64,000 nt of DNA from Synechococcus sp. M16CYN (GTDB taxonomy: Bacteria > Cyanobacteriota > Cyanobacteriia > PCC-6307 > Cyanobiaceae). The stretch is taken from NCBI RefSeq assembly GCF_040371545.1, contig NZ_AP029048.1:1550001-1614000 (forward strand). The letters run 5' to 3'. The stretch's first letter is position 1. Each line of letters opens with the position of its first letter. The notes beneath the pieces are model-generated. The model made no database searches, was not told the origin of the DNA, and was given only the letters and a program-made list of their open reading frames with translations. Below, piece by piece: positions 2,382-58,813 of the stretch. The position numbers and the translations under genes were made by a program.

Positions 2382-2618
2382 ATGGTGATGTGTAGCCATC
2401 CACAGCCAACAGCATCGGTGGAACTGAAACAGTTTCTACAAAGATGCGTTGGCCTGAGTTTAAGTGCTCTTCAGCTGGGATCAAAGCAAGCCGAACTAGA
2501 ACAAGCACCCCTACCAATTGTTCTATGGAGCTTTGGTTTACTAAGCCTTGATCAGCTACAAATAGTTCTGGATTGGCAAGACGCTCAGTCGTCACGAAGA
2601 AAAACTTGGATGGGTTGA
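2382..2618 (+). CDS. DUF2949 family protein
   Basis: A 78-residue soluble protein with the pattern of the cyanobacterial DUF2949 family: an N-terminal helix (LKQFLQRCVGLS), a short helix with SALQLGSKQAEL, then LPIVLWSFGLLSLDQLQIVLDW, where the LP-VLW-GL-LEQL-DW residues are the conserved core. A second ATG at 2388 would remove two residues. The function is unknown. It lies 23 bases after the hydroxylase gene on the same strand. Confidence 0.75.
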   Translation: MVMCSHPQPTASVELKQFLQRCVGLSLSALQLGSKQAELEQAPLPIVLWSFGLLSLDQLQIVLDWQDAQSSRRKTWMG

Positions 2619-2952
2619 TTAAAAATTCTCAACAGAACCATTCTACTGTTTACTCTCTTCAGCTTAGTAAAAAGGCAAAACCCATTTGATGTCTGCCGAC
2701 ACCGTTTTGCCGATTGAAATATCAATCATAGTGATACCTCCGTAGCGATTGGATCATCCGCAACAAGAATTTGAGGTTATCTAGACAAGGCATCAGTTTT
2801 GATTTCCCAACATCTCGCTATCTAAGCTTAAAAGTGTAATGTATTAACCACGTGTTCCAGCGACTTTCCAAATTTTCGCACCAAAATTAGAGTCAGGATT
2901 ACAGTAAATAAATACCCTATACATGAAATTAATGAACTCTCGGTATTCAGTA
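2619..2952. other. non-coding stretch
   Basis: I see no gene here. The only local structure is a short 6-bp hairpin with a 4-base loop at 2712-2727, without a T-run, so it is not a convincing terminator for the upstream genes. Confidence 0.5.
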
Positions 2953-3153
2953 CTAAACGATTGAATCCAAGTTAGCGCTTTCACAAATAAGCGCAAGCTG
3001 TTGGATCACTTCTGCAGTAACTTCGGGTAAGCTAAATATCGAGTCAGTATCTCTGATAGAGAATCTCGGGTTTGAAACAATCTGGAACCATTCTGAACTA
3101 TGCAATCGAAGATCCAAAGCTAGGCGACGAGAGGATGTGACTCTTGGTGTCAT
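2953..3153 (-). CDS. possible small protein, 66 residues
   Basis: An ATG-initiated minus-strand frame whose residues look protein-like rather than random: LALDLRLHSSEWFQIVSNP, then FSIRDTDSIFSLPEV, then a helix ending LALICESANLDSIV. It is divergent from the DUF3038 gene, and its start would overlap the 17 bases between GTG 3137 and 3153, which favours the later GTG 3161 as the DUF3038 start. No family is recognised. It may equally be the tail of a decayed longer gene. Confidence 0.4.
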   Translation of the reverse strand: MTPRVTSSRRLALDLRLHSSEWFQIVSNPRFSIRDTDSIFSLPEVTAEVIQQLALICESANLDSIV

Positions 3154-3160
3154 CGCAGCC

Positions 3161-3703
3161 GTGACAAAAACCCCAACGCAACCTGGTTCTGGTGCCCGCC
3201 TCAGCCGTCGTGGTGTTCAGCGTCTCGATCTTCTATTGCTCACTATTGAAGCCCTCGACCTTAACGGTAGTGAAGCGATGCTTTGGACGAGCCACCAGAT
3301 GGGGTTTCAAACCCAGTTTCCTAATCGAGTTGAACTGTGGAAGCGTCGGTGTCATAACCCCTTGCGTCGCACCACGCGACGCGAACAGCTAGATCCAGTT
3401 GATGCTGAATCCATGATCTGTTTGGTGTGCGCGATGGCTGAACGTCTCTACCCGATGCTTCACCAGTTACTTTCAAGCCGTGAACCGGCTTGTCTTACTC
3501 AACAACGCTGGCTGCTACTCAAAAAACGCCTAGGTGATTTGATTGAAGAGCGAATGAACCTTCGGCGTGGAGCTGTGCTGCACCTGTTGAATCCCGATAA
3601 GGAGGGAATTTTGCATCATCAACTAATCAGCACCCTAGCTCTCTGTGCAGGAGCCGGCGGGGTAAACAGACTTCGTGCCACGTTGCTCGACCCTACACCT
3701 TGA
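3161..3703 (+). CDS. DUF3038 family protein
   Basis: About 180 residues, all-helical and soluble. RRGVQRLDLLLLTIEALDLNG near the N-terminus and WLLLKKRLGDLIEERMN in the second half are the hallmarks of DUF3038, found only in cyanobacteria and nearly always paired with DUF4335, as here. No membrane segment or catalytic motif is visible. The start is uncertain: GTG 3161 gives MTKTPTQPG and matches the usual short lead; GTG 3137 adds eight residues. Neither has a clear ribosome site. The function is unknown. Confidence 0.8.
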   Translation: MTKTPTQPGSGARLSRRGVQRLDLLLLTIEALDLNGSEAMLWTSHQMGFQTQFPNRVELWKRRCHNPLRRTTRREQLDPVDAESMICLVCAMAERLYPMLHQLLSSREPACLTQQRWLLLKKRLGDLIEERMNLRRGAVLHLLNPDKEGILHHQLISTLALCAGAGGVNRLRATLLDPTP

Positions 3704-3710
3704 CTTAGCC

Positions 3711-4337
3711 ATGCAAAAAAACATATACAGCTATGAGCAAACCGCCGCTCTTCTTCTGATTGAAGGGTATCCGGATTTATCCGCTAGCCATGGTAACGAT
3801 GCCATCAGCATCCTTTCTGCATGGCGACTGCAAATTATCGGAGCTCCAGAATTAGAGGGAACCTGTGAACATCTTGAAGCATTGATGACAGTTGTCATGC
3901 CCTATGCCCGACATTGTTTATCAGGCGTGAGGCGTCGTTTTGGTGCCACCGACAGTTTTGTATCGATCAGCCCCAATGGCTCTGGTGCAGGACACCAACT
4001 AGAACTGCGAAGCAGCCGTGACGAAGTCGAACCATTGCAAATCAATCTTGATGACGCTGACCTTGCTGACCTAGTGCAATGCTTGGATTTACTCCGTTTA
4101 GACGAGCGAGTGAAACTTGCCTGGACGATCCCCGCAGATCATCCGCTTAAACGAAGAGAGATTATGGATCGCATTCCCCTGCAACATCGTCTCGTTGCCC
4201 CGGTTTTTGGAAGTCTTGCACTGGGAGCCACAGTTGCGATAGCCATGATTCAACCATTGCCGCTAACACATGAAGAGGCAACGTTACAATTGTCGACTCC
4301 TGCCGCCGAGACAATACAGCCTACTGTCAAACAATGA
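3711..4337 (+). CDS. DUF4335 family protein
   Basis: A 208-residue protein beginning at ATG 3711, seven bases after the DUF3038 stop. The core YSYEQTAALLLIEGYPDLS, then RLQIIGAPELEG and a segment ending in YARHCLSGVRRRFG, is typical of DUF4335. A hydrophobic stretch near residues 160-180 (VFGSLALGATVAIAMIQ) is a probable membrane anchor, followed by a polar tail. The DUF3038/DUF4335 pair is conserved in cyanobacteria, so the proteins probably act together, but the role is not known. This is the last gene before the AT-rich block. Confidence 0.8.
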   Translation: MQKNIYSYEQTAALLLIEGYPDLSASHGNDAISILSAWRLQIIGAPELEGTCEHLEALMTVVMPYARHCLSGVRRRFGATDSFVSISPNGSGAGHQLELRSSRDEVEPLQINLDDADLADLVQCLDLLRLDERVKLAWTIPADHPLKRREIMDRIPLQHRLVAPVFGSLALGATVAIAMIQPLPLTHEEATLQLSTPAAETIQPTVKQ

Positions 4338-5228
4338 TGTTTAGCAATTAACCTTTGTCAATTAATAAAACTAGCAATGTTGTTATACTTCAAGTCTAGG
4401 AGCTGGCCAGTTAGACTCGATATGATTCGTTTGCTCGCATAAGAGCCTGCCAGTCGCAACAAGCTGTCACTATAGCTACGAATCACTAAGTAAGTTTCTT
4501 CCGACCATATATATCGCCCTAACTAGGATTTGCTACTGTGCAAGGCTTGGTTAAAGAGCACGAAAAGAACCAGCATGGAAATAGAGGTACCAATAAGATA
4601 ACGATTACTTTAGAGTCGATAGTTAGCATTTCATAAACAACATGCAACAAGAATTGCTCTATATTCAAGATGAATTTAATTGAATGATTGATAGAGTTAT
4701 CAAATTTTAGGAATTACACAACCATCGTAGTAAAAATATTTTTTATCAATCTAAAAAATTAAATAATATTTTAATACCACGTTAAAATTTTTACACATAT
4801 TGGAAAGCTAATAATGAATATTAAACTACAATTAATATAATTAAACTGATATAAAAGTGAAAAATTTTTATTGTACTAAAAATTAAATTAATCGTATATA
4901 TCTTATCTATAGTTTAAATCAATAATCGTAAGTAACAACGTTTTACTAAAATATTAACTTCTAATCAATATAAAAGAATAACAGAAATGATTTCAAAATA
5001 AGATTAAAAATAAATAATACGATTAGCAATTTGATTCTAGCAACACTAAATTATGTGATTAATACCTCAAAAATGAAAATACTACAATGAGTTAAGCAAT
5101 ATAATTCTGAAGTAACTTAATTAATATCAAAAAAAGATATCAACGAATATACTCGTCTAAACCATCTCTACTACATACTAAAGCAAAGCACTTTTGAAGA
5201 TAAAAGTATAATTTTATTTAGCTTTTAA
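4338..5228. other. start of AT-rich non-coding block
   Basis: The first 250 bases keep moderate GC, then composition falls to roughly a quarter GC and stays there. All six frames are dense in stops and I see no gene, tRNA or structured element. Confidence 0.6.
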
Positions 5229-11126: not shown

Positions 11127-12121
11127 TAATTTAGTGTCGTTTGCTTGTGATCTTAAGAGCGGTATTTGCACCTGAAACCGAGCTAATGTAGCAGCGCCGG
11201 TTGACTAATTTTGACGTTTTCCTCCGCGCTGCGCACAGGACACCCCTGCGGGCTGTGAATCCAGATGAACTTGACCAGAAAGCTTATTAGATGGTGTGAT
11301 AACTGCATAACTGCACGATGGAGAAGGTTTTGCAAGAGCGTTTCAAGACTTGGGCATTTCTCTGATCATAGATAAGCCTCATAGTTCATAAATAAACCTT
11401 ATAGTCAACCTTAGCTATTTAAACTCAGCATTGCTCTTAGTTAGGGCGGGAAGCATCGCTTTGAAAGCCCATATGCGTTGTATAGATTACCGGCAACGGT
11501 ACAGCGATCCAGTCACAATGTCAGTAATCAAGCGTTCGCAGCAGGTTTTAAGATCTATGAGAACTCTCCACTATTAGGAACTGCTGCTACTGACACAGAA
11601 GGGAATAGAGGACCAGCTTCATCATTAGGGTTGAATCCGTGCAGTAGCACCACTGAGGCTAATCTATAAATACGGGACCTGCATATGATCGCGTCACGGA
11701 GCTGTAGATCGACCTGAACCTACCTTTGCTTCTAGGTTTGCGGCACAGATTCAGCCTTTAATAAACCTTCATCAACGGAAACATCATTGTAGTGCATCTG
11801 GAGCCCGTGAATGGTCTGAAAATCACCCATTTACAAATCATCCGAGAACCAGTGAGTTGGTCAGTGATTTCATTATCGCGATTCTAGCGCTGGGAGAGTA
11901 ATGCGATCTATTTATTGGGGGTGGGGGGGTTAAATGTTGGTGTAACAGACAGTTTAGTAAATCAGAATCTTTAACAGTGAATCAGGAACCATTGCTTCCC
12001 GGGAAGAGCCACATCAGGCAACCATAAACATTGGAAGATTAGTAATCGGATCACAAATAGTGGTTACTAGTCAGAAGCAAATTTAGTGGTTGTTTTAAGT
12101 GGTAAAGCAGCTGCCCAACGA
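11127..12121. other. non-coding stretch, probably gene debris
   Basis: One kilobase with no intact gene. A 63-residue frame at 11478-11669 and an open stretch around 11700-11900 contain protein-like runs (for example FASRFAAQIQPLI and TSELVSDFIIAILALGE) in one plus-strand frame interrupted by several stops. This may be a dead gene, but I cannot name it. Confidence 0.4.
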
Positions 12122-12147
12122 CGAGGATGCCGTTAAAGGCACCCTCG
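12122..12147 (-). terminator. hairpin after the class II aldolase gene
   Basis: An inverted repeat, CGAGGATGCC with GGCACCCTCG around a 6-base loop, with one mismatch. It lies 40 bases past the stop of the minus-strand aldolase gene. No T-run follows on either strand, so it is a weak terminator or a 3' stabilising stem. Confidence 0.4.
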
Positions 12148-12187
12148 GTCTCTTAAACCGTTCACTTTACTTATATTAAGTCAATCA

Positions 12188-13264
12188 TCAGGCAGCAACA
12201 ACAGCAGTCTTAGGATCAAGAACGCCCTTAGCGTACTGACTGGCAAAGTAGTTTATGTCGCACTGTTTTATCTTACTAGCATTACCAGCAGCCCAGAACT
12301 GCCGATAACGGTCCAAACAAACTTGTTTCATGTATTTCCGAGCCGGCTTGTTGAAGTGGCGAGGGTCGAAATTAGCGGGATCAGCTATGGCGGCTTCGCG
12401 GACAGCCGCGGTGAAAGCAAGGCGGTTATCAGTATCAATATTCACCTTACGTACACCATTACGAATACCTTCTTGAATCTCTTCGACAGGTACACCATAA
12501 GTTTCAGGGATCGCACCGCCGTATTTATTGATCATCTCAAGCCACTCTTGTGGGACAGATGAGGAGCCATGCATTACCAGGTGGGTGTTGGGTATTGCTT
12601 TATGAATTTCAGCAATGCGGCTGATTGCTAGCACCTCGCCAGTAGGTTTGCGGGTGAATTTGTAAGCACCATGACTGGTACCAATGGCGATCGCCAGAGC
12701 GTCCACTTTGGTTTTGGACACAAAATCAGCTGCTTCAGCAGGGTCAGTCAGCAACTGATCTTTGGATAACTCACCCTCGAAACCGTGACCGTCTTCGGCT
12801 TCACCCTTGCCGGTTTCAAGAGAACCAAGACAACCCAATTCACCCTCCACGCTAACGCCGATTGCGTGGGCCACATCAACTACTTCCCTTGTGACTTTAA
12901 CATTGTAGTCGTAGCTAGCGGGAGTCTTGGCGTCAGCTTCCAAAGAGCCGTCCATCATCACGGAAGTAAATCCATTCGCTGCAGCACCGAAACAGGTGGC
13001 AGGGCTATTGCCGTGATCTTGATGCATCACCACCGGGATATCCGGATACGTCTCGACAGCAGCCAGAATCAGATGACGTAGGAAATTTTCGCCTGCATAG
13101 GTTCGCGCACCACGAGAAGCCTGCAAGATTACAGGAGAATCGGTTTCATGCGCTGCTTCCATGATCGACTGCACCTGCTCGAGGTTATTTACGTTGAATG
13201 CAGGGATGCCGTAGCCGTTTTCTGCGGCATGGTCTAGCAGTAATCGAAGAGGAACGAGCGCCAT
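12188..13264 (-). CDS. fbaA: class II fructose-1,6-bisphosphate aldolase
   Basis: A 358-residue zinc-dependent aldolase that joins or splits triose phosphates and fructose or sedoheptulose bisphosphates in the Calvin cycle and glycolysis. Start ATG 13264 ([27 protein letters not shown]) matches the family; the frame continues 51 codons upstream without conservation. Zinc and active-site motifs are visible: [40 protein letters not shown] and [11 protein letters not shown]. It is now the only working aldolase gene in the window, because the class I gene upstream is dead. It is followed by a hairpin at 12122. Confidence 0.95.
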
Positions 13265-13459
13265 AGTAAAGTCCCAAATAAAGGCCGATAAACGGACATA
13301 GAGTCTGTAACCGCGAGACTTTACCTGTGAACCATGTGAAATGTCACTATGTTCAGGTGCCTTAACGACACGAGGATGTTGCATGAAATAGATTCGGTTA
13401 GGTGCAGGCAGCAACAAAAGCTGTTCATTACATCGCTACAGGACAGTTGATGTCTAGGA

Positions 13460-14450
13460 ACGCAACACCCTCACGAGGCTTCAGAATTGGCTCTTGCTTT
13501 AGACTGAGGAGCCGCTTTCTCTTTTTCCGTATGCGAGCCTTGCCAAGCTTCAGGCATGAACGCCGAAGAGCTTTTCCATAAGAAGTCAAAGATTCCAGTT
13601 TGCTTTATTTAAGTAGGTTGTTCGTCGTGTTGAGATGAGCAGACGCGGCTTCTCTCACTTAAACCACCAGAGAGAAAAACAACCCCAGGAACACTGGCAG
13701 GTACTCTTCTTGTCTCTCTAATGCTTGTATGGCCAGTCCGGCGACAATTTCAGGATCGGCTTTCTGAGCTCCGCGTCCTATATCGTCATGGGTGGCTTGA
13801 GCGGAGTACCTTCTAGAAGAATGCTATCAACATGGCAAGCGTAGTATAATCGACTCAATAATCCGTTCTCAAACAGGTACAGTGGCCTCGAAGCGCGATA
13901 GCTGTCCATAGAAACTCAGGCTCAATGATTGGGACGAGGCCAGACTGCTGAACGCTTCTGGCATAACGGGCAAGGACCTACGCATTTTCACAAATCGACG
14001 ATTCAGAAAGACAACCGTTAGAAGCGATTTGAAGCACAGTACGCCATTTAGCGAAGCGAGCGCCACAAGCCTGGTAATCGGTAGCTCGCTCCGCTGGGTT
14101 GTCCAGGCCTGTGCAAAGGGGCTCAACGGAACCTGTCCTAGGGAGAAAGCGAAAACCTTCATCAACCTTGATTCCTGGAATCACTCCCAGCTTCTGTAAT
14201 TTTTGAATTATCGAATCACCACCTGCATGATTTTGAAAAAGAGTCTCTTAACAAATAATTGCACCGCTCATGTAAGTAGCTAGGCCTTGCGTAATGAAAA
14301 ACATGCCGCGGTTACGCCAGGCGGTTTGCTTCTATGTTTCCAACATTGATTGGACCTAATCCCTGACCAATTGTTTTGGTAAATTCATCTACAATAAGAA
14401 TTCTTTTCCGAGACTCTACAAGAGATTGAGCTGTCGCTATCAGCTCCTAA
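13460..14450 (-). pseudogene. fda: class I fructose-bisphosphate aldolase, decayed
   Basis: Reading the minus strand across three frames recovers nearly the whole family in order: TAQSLVESRKRILIVDEFT-KTIG-GPINV (N-terminus, near 14437), then MFFITQGLATYMSGAII, ETLFQNHAGG, VIPGIKVDEG, ARFAKWRTVLQIAS, ARYARSVQQSGLVPIIEPE, ILLEGTPLKP (the Schiff-base lysine region), VPGVVFLSGGLSE, and AWQG plus ARANSEAS at the C-terminus (near 13470). It is broken by frameshifts and by in-frame stops, including TAA after SGAIIC where the family has Glu, and TAG after SICENA where it has Trp. The order of the blocks is intact, so this is point decay, not rearrangement. It sits directly upstream of the class II gene. 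Confidence 0.9.
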
Positions 14451-14595
14451 AAAAGTCAGTAAGAAACATATCGAATAAAAAGTAATATTCAGCCTAAAAA
14501 TCCATAATATTTGTAAGTTACTGACAACTTATTGTTTCAATTAAAACAGTTTAGTTTGTTTATGATTCATCGCATTAAATGTTCAAAAACTCAGG

Positions 14596-15663
14596 CTAAT
14601 TGGTAGCCGCAGCGTCGCAGCAGAGTCTGCTTGCTATTCCTTCCATTAGTCCGGGAACCATAGGTTTGCCACTATAAATGCTCTGGGCCCACCAACTCTG
14701 AACTCGCGCCACTGGTGCCACGCGCCCATCGCTCCACGTGGTTGAAAAAGCTAAATCTGTGTCGGGTTGAATATGGCGTAGCGATTCTCCGGATGCCGCA
14801 TGCCATAGCGTAAAACCATGAACATAATCTTTTTGATTCTCGCTACCCAGGATTAAGCTACCTTCAGACCCATAGACCTCAAACCAACAGCCGCGTCCGT
14901 TGCGCGCAACGGAGGCAAGGGTTATCTGTGCTGGAACTGAGCAAACAGAACTCCCCTCCCATTGCAACGTGGTCTGAATCAAAGATACGTCTTCTGCATC
15001 CACCGACACCATCCTCCCGTCCAAACCAGGACGCTTTCCAATCGAAACTTTGTTAAGCGCTTGGACCGAGCCAACAGGACCTATTAGCCACGCCAGAATA
15101 TCAAAAGCATGAGTGCCCAGAGCACCAATGACACCACCGCCAGCGCTGCGATCAGAGTACCAATTCCAACCTCGGCCGGCATCCGCGCGACTACTCATCA
15201 ACCAGTCCAGTTTCACTAACCAAGGAGTCCCAATCGCACCAGCGCGAAGCAAGCGCTCCGCTTGCATAAACAGCGGTACTGCTCGGTATTCGTAGTCCAC
15301 AGCAACACTGAGACGCTGTTGCAAAGCCAACCTTTGAAGTTCCATCGCCTGATCCACATGTAATGCAATGGGTTTTTCCAATAAAAGATGTTTACCTGCA
15401 TGCAAGGCCTGCAAGGCAAGGTCAAAACGAGGAGCAGGTGGCGTAGCGATAATGACCGCATCAACGTCAGGATCGGCAACTAAAGCATCCCAGCTGTCGT
15501 AGCCGTTGAGCCCTGACAACGTACAAGCTAAATCTAGTCGCTCTCGGCGTGGATGCCAGAGAGCAACGGCCTTTAAGTCTGGATTGGATTCCAAAGCAGG
15601 CAGGTGTACCTTTTCACCAAAACCAAGTCCGGCGATAGCAACTCCTATGGGTTGGGTGAACAT
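14596..15663 (-). CDS. Gfo/Idh/MocA family oxidoreductase
   Basis: A 355-residue NAD(P)-dependent dehydrogenase-like protein. Residues 6-20 (GVAIAGLGFGEKVHL) form the Rossmann nucleotide site, and LLLEKPIALHVDQAMEL is the EKP motif of this family. The C-terminal half is the alpha/beta substrate domain, with GVIGALGTHAFDILAWLIGP. The substrate, probably a sugar or sugar acid, cannot be read from the sequence. ATG 15663 is chosen because it lies just after the stop of the upstream gene; the frame could begin 12 codons earlier. It is the last gene of the accD cluster. Confidence 0.85.
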   Translation of the reverse strand: MFTQPIGVAIAGLGFGEKVHLPALESNPDLKAVALWHPRRERLDLACTLSGLNGYDSWDALVADPDVDAVIIATPPAPRFDLALQALHAGKHLLLEKPIALHVDQAMELQRLALQQRLSVAVDYEYRAVPLFMQAERLLRAGAIGTPWLVKLDWLMSSRADAGRGWNWYSDRSAGGGVIGALGTHAFDILAWLIGPVGSVQALNKVSIGKRPGLDGRMVSVDAEDVSLIQTTLQWEGSSVCSVPAQITLASVARNGRGCWFEVYGSEGSLILGSENQKDYVHGFTLWHAASGESLRHIQPDTDLAFSTTWSDGRVAPVARVQSWWAQSIYSGKPMVPGLMEGIASRLCCDAAATN

Positions 15664-34743: not shown

Positions 34744-35395
34744 CTACCTGTAGAAGAGAATCTTTGGATACAGATTTTCTAAATCGGAGGTAAAGCGTAG
34801 CAAATGCAATCAATCTGAGCGGCTCTAGGACTAAACTACTGGGCGAAAACGGTCACAAACATTTAGCTAGTTAGGTTATAGTCACACCCTCGATACATAG
34901 CTTAACCAAAGGTAACCGAGATTCGCAGACAGTTGTCGCAACCAGTTTTCGTCAAGTCAGATCACTGTGAGTGTAGACGTTACAAATAAACATCGGACCC
35001 CTATTCGTAGAAATCCGACCAATGTTTTCAATATCTCTAGCAACAATGACGTCAGATCCAAACTGGCACAGACTAGATCTTTTAAAAGAATCTCCATCCA
35101 GGACGTCGCACATGGCAAAAATAGGTTGAGAGTTTTACAATCACCATTATCTGAGTAAAGGCACACTGTGAGGTTGAAAAACTTTCGCCGTAATCAAAAT
35201 TGAAAAGATCAACCAACATCAGAGCGCAGTCTTTTCCCCGTTAGAACCTTTTCTTCGACAAACAATAATGAGCATCTCCACCTCGGTTCTAGATATGGAA
35301 AGTAATCATTCGGAGAAACAAGCCAACCTGACCCATCTCGTGCACCATCTTAGACCCAACGATCATCGGATAACAACCTGCTAAGAACCTACACT

Positions 35396-35613: not shown

Positions 35614-36978
35614 CTTGATGTGCGAATGGGCAAATCTTGCATTTCATGGCATCCTGAACCCAAGATGCCCCGCTGCATCCATGCAGTGTTTCCAATAGGG
35701 AAACATAATATTGTTCTAGCCGCTCTTCTTATGACTGGGGTGCTAGCGCAGGCACGCAGGTTGCAAGTAGGTATCAGTGATCCCTACCACCTGCTATCCA
35801 GAGCAGCACATCACACTTCCTTTGAGGGAATCGGTCTTGACGTCTAGCGCAAAGTGGTCGACGTCAATAGCCGAATTTGCGACTTTGTGCGGTAAGAAAC
35901 CCTACAAAAAAGACCGCTTTTATTGGTGAAGGTGTAACTAATATACTAATGATTGGGTCCACTTAGCATTACTCCGCGTCAGTTATCTGTCTTGAGCATT
36001 GATTTCCGTTTGGTGTGCTACTGGCAATGGCTAGTATAATTTGATTTGTCAAATAGCAACCGATTCCCCAAAGCTTAATTACCAGCCATCGCCAATTGGT
36101 GTGTGGCTTGCTTTCGTCATACTTACCGCTGTAGATTACGAGGACAAAACACTCATCACCTGTACAGGGCGAGTAATTGCCGCCATATGAATGTTGGTCT
36201 CTCGAACTGCTTTGTCATCATTCACGTTAACCTTAATCTTTACCTTCACTGTGTTTCTGTCAGGAGCTATATAGATCGCAATTAACACACCGCTTTAGTT
36301 TCAACAGCAACGAGTGGTAGTCATTGAAGGAACAAGTGGAGTTGAATTGACCAAGCAGGAAAATATAATGCATCACCCAGATAAAAATCTGACAACCGGA
36401 GTTAATACAATTTTATTGGATGCAACAGAAGCCTTGATCTTCGATCGGCCGACTATTACATCAAAGAAAATCTCTGGCTTGCCGTGCAACCAGCATCATT
36501 CATTTTTACGGAAGAAACCTATGGCTTTGTCCTCAAAACGGGCAATCTGCCCTAGAATCTTTTAGATGTATCGATTTAAAACCACAAGGTTTGCAGCAAA
36601 TCTAATTCGTTATTAACAAACTTTTAGATTAATCAACAGCGGAAGTTATGGTAATGCGGTGCCGCTTTTAAGCGATAAGACGCAGGATCACCGCAATCTT
36701 AGCCCAAGGCATGCCACTTGAAATCGTTTATAAAATCATGAGAGAGACTCACAACTAACACGCTTAGGAGCCGACAGGTGTCCACAACAATCACACGCGT
36801 GGTTTATCGAACACGTTTCCCACCATGTTCTACTGAGGGTAGCGAACAAAACCTTGAAAAAGCAATAAGATCTGATGCTCAACACTAAAAAGCGGACTCT
36901 ACGTATGATCGCGTTTTTAATCGGCTTACGCCTGGAAACAACATCTAGACGTACCCTTAAGCAGATTTTCGAGGTGCC

Positions 36979-38170: not shown

Positions 38171-38644
38171 ATATCGGAAGATTATGCTTGCCGCCGTCTC
38201 TACGCTCGCCGTAAGGGGTGTAACTCTAATCCCTAGGAAATTACCTCTCCATAAAGATGCAGATTTTCGGAGGGGTCATGTACCTAGAAGAGCAAATCCC
38301 TCGCGGTTGAAAATGCCGAGCCATAGCTGCTTCGCTGCATCTTTGAGAAGCGCTATGAGTCGATTGCATACCCTTTATCGTTAGGTCCAGCCGAGAAACG
38401 TGTGATCCGGAATACGCCAAAACACTTAACAATGCTTACGCTTAAGCGCATTGCGCGCCTTCCGTGCCGAGAAAGCGTACTCACGTCGCAATGACAAGGG
38501 TTCATTTGCTGGCGCATGGTCATGCAAAGTATGCTGTCTCACTAGTGCCATCGGATATATCTAAAACAAATGAAACTGAGAAAATAACCACATTGTATTT
38601 AGGCAACAATACTTAATTCTTAGTTATCTGTCTATGCCAAACAG

Positions 38645-54296: not shown

Positions 54297-55336
54297 AATT
54301 GCCACACTATCCAGTTGAAGACCGCCTGGACTGCCCATATAGAGCTGCGGCTGAAGGGTAAATACTGAGTTGCCAAATCGACCTTCGCCGAGAGCACGTT
54401 GGTCACCTGCACGGCTCCACTTAACCCCTGTCAAGCGGATGCTAACCGAGTCGCATAGTTCCGGCGCTACATTCTAATTTTCTTTAGTTGTCTTGCCATA
54501 GCTGAAGACCGGAATTAGCCCAGCAGTGCGGCCAATCATCAACCTCACTTGGCAACGTAGACACCTAATCGATGATACAAACATGGATTTCTCATTAGGC
54601 ATAAAGCATAAAATCTTTCCAGAGTTTGGTTGGTTTGGTACAGCAGAGAATGCGAGCAATACCGGGTTTGTTTTGTCATGAGGCTACATCGAGAGATTAG
54701 CGGGCTTAACCTAACCACTCCTTCTAGAATAGACATTGCACCTAACCTTAAAAACTGCAAATCGGCTTAAGTAATAAATAGGAATTGATAGGGAAGTACT
54801 TTCTCTCGAAGTTGACTAGCCAGCTGCCATAAGAAGTCCTTGGTGCCACATATTCTTTTGCAGTAAGGCTCATAACGAACATGGGGTTTTCTTCTTCACT
54901 AAACTGGAGGCAGTTGTATTCGGGTCCCCCATAAGCATCAAGTAAGTTTTAAATCAATATATACACGGTAGTGTTCGACCCTTAGCAGAGCACTGCCAAC
55001 CGTTGAGGCATCATCAATGAACACCAATCCAAACTTTTCCAACGCCATCGCCGTTTGTTCAGTGGGCTCATCGAGGTACGTTACCAGAACGTCTAAGCTA
55101 TGGTTGTAATAGTTGGTGAATGATGGAAGGATATGAGCTTGGGTGCGATACCTCGAGATCTGTATAGCCTAACGCGACACACTCATGGATTTATGAGCAG
55201 GAGTCACGACATTTCAACGTAAGTCACCAGCCTTTACTCGACCTAACAGGCGCAGCGACAATAAAGAGGTCATACCACCTCCGGCACAACTACTTGGCAC
55301 AAACAGTATTCTGTTAATAGGAGAGCGACCGACCAT
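54267..55336 (-). pseudogene. decayed gene of about 350 codons, family unknown
   Basis: From ATG 55336 (MVGRSPINRILFVPSSCAGG) the minus strand reads through in-frame TGA and TAG codons into AHILPSFTNYYNHSLDVLV, EPTEQTAMALEKFGLVFIDD and LLRVEHYRVYIDLKLT. After a frameshift it continues LDAYGGPEYNCLQFSEEE, MFVMSLTAKEYVAPRTSYG, LVNFERKYFPINSYLLLKP. The 3' part (54659-54267) resumes in one frame with a single TAG, giving LTGVKWSRAGDQRALGEG, FTLQPQLYMGSPGGLQLD and a TAG end. The blocks are clearly protein, but I cannot name the family. It lies just beyond the DUF212 gene. Confidence 0.65.
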
Positions 55337-57984: not shown

Positions 57985-58813
57985 GCCTTTGGGAATCGCT
58001 CCTCCCAGCATGCCTCTTCAAGAGAGCTGGCGTGTTGGATCAACGTATCATGCTTGATCCAATTTCCACGCGCTAACAATATTCGAAGATATTTGCTGTG
58101 TCTTCAATCTCCGACTCGTCACTGATTGCAGTGGACACGTTTACAAATAGAGCTCGATTCGAGCGTCTGTTTTACTGCAGCGATGGTTGTCAACCTACCC
58201 TGATCCTGGCTCATTGAGTGCAATCTAGAGTCTGAGTCCTGCACGCCTGTTAGGTAGTAAGGTTATCTACTCGAAAAAACCTTGGTGGTTAGTATGCACG
58301 CTGTCAAATCCATCCTCTTCGCTAAGAGAGCTGGCAGCAACACACGACAATGCCCTTATGGTCTTAACAGGCACAAAACGCTGCCCGAGATACAGTAGGA
58401 CCATTGAACAGACAGTATGTCTCTATACATCACTATAGTTCGTTCGTCCTAGCAAAGTGTCTCTACCAAACGCTTGCGACAACCCCAAGCCGTAAGCGAT
58501 TAGACTCTAGTTTTTCTTGCAAACTGCAGACAAAAACCGACACAGTCTCAAGTTGTAACTTGTGCCCTACATAAAACCAGGAGAGGGGCGGTAGTTCAAA
58601 TTTGTCCAATTTTAACAACCAATGCATAAACCCAGAGTAGAGAAGCGGTCCTGTTTCTTGGCTTCGACGGCCGAGTAAATGCGATTTAAATTTTAGTCTT
58701 GGGGTCGCTCGCTAACAATGACAAGTGCATGCAAGCAAGTGTACTAGGTTGCGAAGTAGCGTGAGTTGGAGAAATCCCGGCAACTCTGACACATAGGCAC
58801 TTCCGAACATGAA
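57985..58813. other. non-coding gap upstream of folD
   Basis: No protein-like frame, tRNA or hairpin recognised. The GGTAGTTCAAATTTGTCC stretch near 58590 resembles a T loop but has no pairing partner. Confidence 0.45.

What the first reader, a model, noticed from the sequence alone, without database searches (positions are those of the whole stretch)
13460..14450. A whole class I fructose-bisphosphate aldolase gene preserved as a corpse beside its class II replacement
On the minus strand, family blocks from the N-terminus to the C-terminus are readable in order (for example VIPGIKVDEG, ARFAKWRTVL, GLVPIIEPE, VPGVVFLSGGLSE), but separated by frameshifts and by at least two nonsense codons, one a TAG where the family has tryptophan. 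The intact class II gene lies directly downstream. My understanding is that marine Synechococcus often keep both enzymes; here one has been dropped recently enough that about 1 kb is still legible.
Basis: partly seen in the sequence, partly recalled or inferred. Interest (0 to 1): 0.75.

Follow-up and report, generated by a model that had tools for sequence, protein, structure and literature searches.

The report
Dead copy of algal-derived aldolase gene
A marine cyanobacterium, probably a symbiont living on a dinoflagellate, carries the decayed but full-length remains of a sugar-metabolism gene that its ancestors once took from red algae, next to the working original; it is an ordinary pseudogene, but similar remains in relatives show how that borrowed gene keeps being lost.

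Summary
Minus strand, about 14469-13398, is a full-length class I fructose-bisphosphate aldolase pseudogene (PF00274, E 2.4e-50 and 2.5e-5; no other match in the genome). It has 13 frame-shifting indels and 7 internal stops in the ancestral frame, including TAG for tryptophan at codon 164. Class II downstream is intact and single. Three corrections. (1) Class II is not a replacement: it is the ancestral enzyme; class I is the newcomer, known since Rogers 2007 (PMC1919352) as taken from red algae and inserted just upstream of class II. (2) The loss is not very recent: 71% identity to G006's intact copy, and roughly 16-44% of its branch unconstrained. (3) It is not alone: four more genes in the window are in pieces and a fifth is a stub, and class I remains lie in the same slot in six other genomes. 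Genome size (1.940 Mb + 17.3 kb) fits CregCyn, the reduced Citharistes regius symbiont (PMC11150560), whose main text does not mention pseudogenes or aldolase. Ordinary decay of a known gene in a reduced genome; modest interest as a loss intermediate.

The parts
13398..14469 (-). full-length pseudogene of class I fructose-bisphosphate aldolase (red-algal plastid type), start codon still ATG
   Evidence: PF00274 matches; alignment to intact 355-codon orthologue, 754/1058 identical, 13 frame-shifting indels, 7 internal stops
12188..13264 (-). intact class II fructose-bisphosphate aldolase (358 aa), the only match of its family in the genome
   Evidence: PF01116 single match E 5.2e-92, no stops; 97% aa identity to G006 and G014
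13265..13397 (-). leader of the class II gene, less eroded than the spacer on the other side of the remnant; holds a GGTAAAGTC box also present in 6 of the 7 class I-bearing relatives aligned, G011 differing (promoter role is inference)
   Evidence: 93 of 126 aligned bases identical to G006, 68 of 86 in the last 88 bases, against 67 of 118 for the mviM-side spacer; alignment
14470..14595 (-). spacer between mviM and the dead gene (its former leader), strongly eroded
   Evidence: 67 of 118 aligned bases identical to G006
14596..15654 (-). intact upstream neighbour, Gfo/Idh/MocA oxidoreductase, taken as the mviM of Rogers 2007
   Evidence: PF01408 E 4.1e-26; 82% aa identity to G006 and conserved order

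Best explanation
The stretch is a unitary, vertically inherited pseudogene. In this lineage, with a shrinking genome, the class I gene stopped being needed because class II does the same reaction (inference), picked up frameshifts and stops, and has been drifting in place without deletion, while class II and mviM stayed under selection (shown). The cell now makes and cleaves fructose bisphosphate with class II alone (inferred from gene content).
For: Only class I match in the genome, broken; single intact class II. Same slot: last aligned mviM codon to class II start is 1335 bases here, 1322-1324 in G006, G014, G027 and G004, and 76-87 in the 14 relatives without class I. 16 relatives carry an intact 355-codon gene in that slot, a 17th a frame-split copy. 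Relaxed selection: differences from G006 assignable to the window side are 105 at codon positions 1+2 and 40 at position 3, against 13 and 35 on the G006 side (111 more unresolved); the same counts for intact class I are 7/20 and 4/19 (G027 against G006) and 20/27 and 28/56 (G011), for class II of the window 11/60 and 2/19, for its mviM 33/43 and 20/24. ML branch at position 2 is 0.214 for the window and 0.006 from the split to G006. In the class I tree of 17 sequences the remnant groups with G006, G014, G027 against the rest at 100%. Of 263 residues invariant in 13 other intact copies the remnant keeps 178, intact G027 keeps 257. Other genes in pieces in the same window.
Against: No reads could be checked; one assembly only. 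Positions of several indels and stops depend on alignment. The split that sets the remnant outside G006+G014+G027 has only 68% support in the class I tree. The age estimate is rough: position 3 is near saturation, its window branch differs between genes (0.484 class I, 0.734 class II, 1.325 mviM), and the window lineage is faster than G006 in class II too (60 against 19 at position 3). That class II covers the whole former role of class I is not shown. The organism name rests on size match and relatives, not on a named record.
Confidence: 0.95

Rival explanations
1. Sequencing or assembly errors broke an intact gene (single-cell amplified genome).
For: If this is CregCyn, the genome came from whole-genome amplification with hybrid assembly (PMC11150560); no reads were available here.
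Against: The excess of substitutions at codon positions 1 and 2 (105 against 13) is not what indel errors give, and the neighbours mviM and class II in the same assembly show no such shift. Of 58 mechanical ORFs of G006 with a match in the window, 53 align in one stretch; the other five are the aldolase and four more genes.
Confidence: 0.02
2. The remnant was retained for a use other than the enzyme, for example as leader or small RNA for the class II gene.
For: It has not been deleted: the slot is still 1335 bases against 1322 in G006, and the last 88 bases before class II are better kept (68 of 86).
Against: The better-kept part lies outside the remnant; inside, substitutions and indels run along the whole length and codon position 2 evolves far faster than in intact copies. 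Fourteen relatives have class II with no class I in the slot.
Confidence: 0.03
3. A translated gene using frameshifting, readthrough or another code.
For: None beyond the readable blocks.
Against: 13 frame-shifting indels, and all three stop codons occur inside; the class II neighbour reads normally under table 11.
Confidence: 0.005

Closest known systems
Red-algal-type class I fructose-bisphosphate aldolase of marine Synechococcus and Prochlorococcus (Rogers, Patron and Keeling 2007, PMC1919352)
   Same: Same family, same slot between mviM and class II aldolase; CC9902 and BL107 reported with both genes.
   Different: The paper reports the copies next to class II without signs of decay; here the copy is dead in its original slot. 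That paper's only possible pseudogene (MIT9303) lies elsewhere in its genome, and its class II also contains stops.
Genome reduction in CregCyn, cyanobacterial symbiont of Citharistes regius (Nakayama 2024, PMC11150560)
   Same: 1.94 Mb chromosome plus about 17 kb plasmid, sister to clade IV, about a quarter to a third fewer proteins than closely related free-living strains.
   Different: The main text counts missing proteins; 'pseudogen', 'aldolase' and 'remnant' do not occur in it.

Membership tests
Class I fructose-bisphosphate aldolase (PF00274) | homology over the family profile | tested here: met
   two adjoining pieces covering profile positions 1-44 and 41-331 of 349
Class I fructose-bisphosphate aldolase (PF00274) | open reading frame able to make the enzyme | tested here: not met
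   13 frame-shifting indels, 7 internal stops: a remnant, not a working member
Red-algal-type aldolase of picocyanobacteria | slot directly upstream of class II, downstream of mviM | tested here: met
Red-algal-type aldolase of picocyanobacteria | groups with copies of the same lineage | tested here: met
   tree of 17 sequences groups it with G006, G014, G027 against the rest at 100%
Red-algal-type aldolase of picocyanobacteria | specific kinship with plastid aldolases of red algae | not tested
   taken from PMC1919352; no red-algal sequences were at hand. The intact G006 copy matches class I aldolases in the PDB, best one named 'Fructose-bisphosphate aldolase 6, cytosolic', E 3.6e-110
Unitary pseudogene | no functional copy elsewhere in the genome | tested here: met
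   (genome 98.54% complete)
Unitary pseudogene | relaxed constraint against intact orthologues | tested here: met
CregCyn genome | named sequence record | tested here: inconclusive
   contig sizes 1,940,073 and, by difference, 17,326 bases fit the paper; the named collection may leave out the window's own records

The most novel reading that the evidence does not exclude
The patchy distribution of the eukaryote-derived aldolase in picocyanobacteria is made, at least partly, by repeated independent death in place of the borrowed gene while the native one stays, and the window and the six other same-slot remains are the loss intermediates that the 2007 study lacked; the reverse loss (class II gone, class I kept) marks other whole lineages.
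Probability: 0.65. Interest if true: 0.45.

Novelty: new member of a known kind. Interest (0 to 1): 0.3.

Why it matters
It catches in the act the loss of a well-known gene transferred from eukaryotes to bacteria. Rogers 2007 preferred repeated loss over repeated transfer but held it premature to decide; same-slot remains in several genera favour loss for those lineages. It also suggests that the reduction of this symbiont-like genome is unfinished, with recognisable pseudogenes that can be used to time it.

Tried and rejected
Considered and rejected: sequencing error, alternative decoding, retained regulatory role (see rivals). Considered whether the gene moved elsewhere: no further match in the genome. 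The family survey sampled 400 genomes and its table of matches was cut, so broken copies that still score high could not all be seen; the count of dead copies is a lower bound. Ten of the genomes listed there had a best match weaker than 1e-100; seven of these (G000, G071, G120, G168, G186, G255, G411) have the remains directly upstream of class II; G138 and G316 have pieces elsewhere, G282 a piece near a contig end and no class II match. G120 is the weakest of the six relatives (tblastn E 9.9e-6, profile E 5.7e-9). Literature: three searches on class I aldolase in these cyanobacteria and three on the symbionts; in their listings I saw no title or abstract start reporting this pseudogene. The library holds open-licence papers only, and apart from PMC1919352 and PMC11150560 no listed paper was opened.

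Full report
What is there. The window is base 1550001-1614000 of a 1,940,073-base contig of a genome of 1,957,399 bases in two contigs. Against the intact 355-codon gene of G006 the remnant is collinear from start codon to stop region: 754 of 1058 aligned bases identical, 7 deletions and 6 insertions, none a multiple of three, and 7 internal stops. Class II (PF01116) is present once and intact, 12188-13264.

Where it sits. I examined the stretch upstream of class II in 31 of the 33 other genomes held for the genus (the other two, 57% and 63% complete, gave no class II match). Seventeen have class I between mviM and class II: 16 intact with exactly 355 codons and one, G004, with a frame split near the end. 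Fourteen have 76-87 bases from the last aligned mviM codon to class II and no class I. The window's distance, 1335 bases, is close to that of G006, G014, G027 and G004 (1322-1324). So the gene was there and died where it stood; it was not moved or cut out.

Evidence of neutral decay. Comparing the window with G006 and using eight other genomes as outgroups, differences that can be assigned to the window side number 105 at codon positions 1 and 2 and 40 at position 3; on the G006 side 13 and 35; 111 differences are unresolved. No compared pair of intact genes shows such a preponderance of position 1+2 changes: intact class I 7/20 and 4/19 (G027 against G006), 20/27 and 28/56 (G011); class II of the window 11/60 and 2/19; its mviM 33/43 and 20/24. 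By maximum likelihood on the tree of class II plus mviM (12 genomes), the window's branch for class I is 0.339, 0.214 and 0.484 at positions 1, 2 and 3; from the split to G006 it is 0.060, 0.006 and 0.565. If the position 2 branch is taken as the unconstrained part and position 3 of class I, class II or mviM (0.484, 0.734, 1.325) as the neutral yardstick, 16-44% of the lineage's own branch was free of constraint. This is rough arithmetic on near-saturated numbers that disagree with each other, and the window lineage is faster than G006 in class II as well; still, it speaks against a very recent loss. The leader of class II is kept better (93 of 126 bases, 68 of 86 next to the gene) than the spacer on the other side (67 of 118).

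Which gene it was. Rogers, Patron and Keeling 2007 (PMC1919352; Abstract, Background, Results and Discussion read, and passages) showed that class I aldolase in marine Synechococcus and Prochlorococcus comes from the plastid-targeted gene of red algae, lies directly upstream of the ancestral class II gene where both are present, and is patchily distributed; CC9902 and BL107 have both. The tree groups the remnant with G006, G014 and G027 at 100% against the rest; the split that sets it outside those three has 68%. Kinship with red algae was not retested here.

Which organism. The contig sizes fit CregCyn, the symbiont of the dinoflagellate Citharistes regius: a 1.94 Mb chromosome and a plasmid of about 17 kb, sister to clade IV, with a reduced protein set (PMC11150560, section Results and discussion read). 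The paper's main text does not contain the words pseudogene, aldolase or remnant. The name remains an inference. The class I gene is one casualty among several: of 106 mechanical ORFs from 100 kb of G006, 58 have a match in the window; 53 of these align in one stretch, and the aldolase and four more in several pieces and frames; one of the 53 is only a 66-residue stub of a 703-residue protein (families). ORFs without a match may lie outside the window, be lost here, or not be genes.

Is it unique? No. In 400 genomes of the family, 224 have a class I match and 321 a class II match. Six further genomes have broken or truncated class I remains in the same slot before an intact class II: G168, G186, G255, G071, G120 and G411. 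One named locus among the 80, L104 (uncultured Prochlorococcus AG-892-C17, labelled MAG), has two stops in an otherwise complete copy. The reverse also occurs: the 30 genomes of genus g79 listed with class I do not appear among the class II-positive genomes listed. These are in line with the differential-loss model that Rogers 2007 preferred. I did not reconstruct the number of independent losses; G168, G186 and G255 share a genus, as do G071 and G120, so the six may be fewer events.

Verdict. A correct and well-read observation of an ordinary process: in-place decay of a redundant, eukaryote-derived enzyme gene in a reduced genome.

Noticed in passing
window 54791-55324, 38396-38551, 36098-36457, 34774-35190 (best stretches): Remains in two or three frames of four genes open in collinear G006: an AAA_30/UvrD-type helicase, an FAD amine-oxidase-like protein, a ligand-gated ion channel (only part of it was given to Pfam) and a protein without Pfam match at 1e-6.
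   Followed up: partly
window 58045-58248: A 66-residue stub at 44% identity of a 703-residue 7TMR-HD protein of G006.
   Followed up: partly
window 11127-12187: Between class II and the next gene, G006 has a gamma-glutamyltranspeptidase and an LD-carboxypeptidase; neither gives a match in the window at 1e-5.
   Followed up: partly
L162 (G005) about 2560-4012; L075 about 3600-4700: Between mviM and intact class I, G005 holds a 41-codon diverged start of a second class I copy plus a 250-codon open frame; L075 (Synechococcus AG-673-A03) has a similar 250-codon frame. It suggests an insertion or duplication at this slot.
   Followed up: partly
L144 (G004), class I gene: A close relative's metagenome assembly has class I split in two frames near its end by two extra bases; a fresh pseudogene or an assembly error.
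   Followed up: no
L143, L147, L149, L153, L155, L158, L164, L166 (8 of the 14 sites without class I): The short class II leader at these sites shares little more than a GGTAA motif and the gene start with the leaders of class I-bearing relatives (by eye), so the two allele types differ beyond the gene itself.
   Followed up: no
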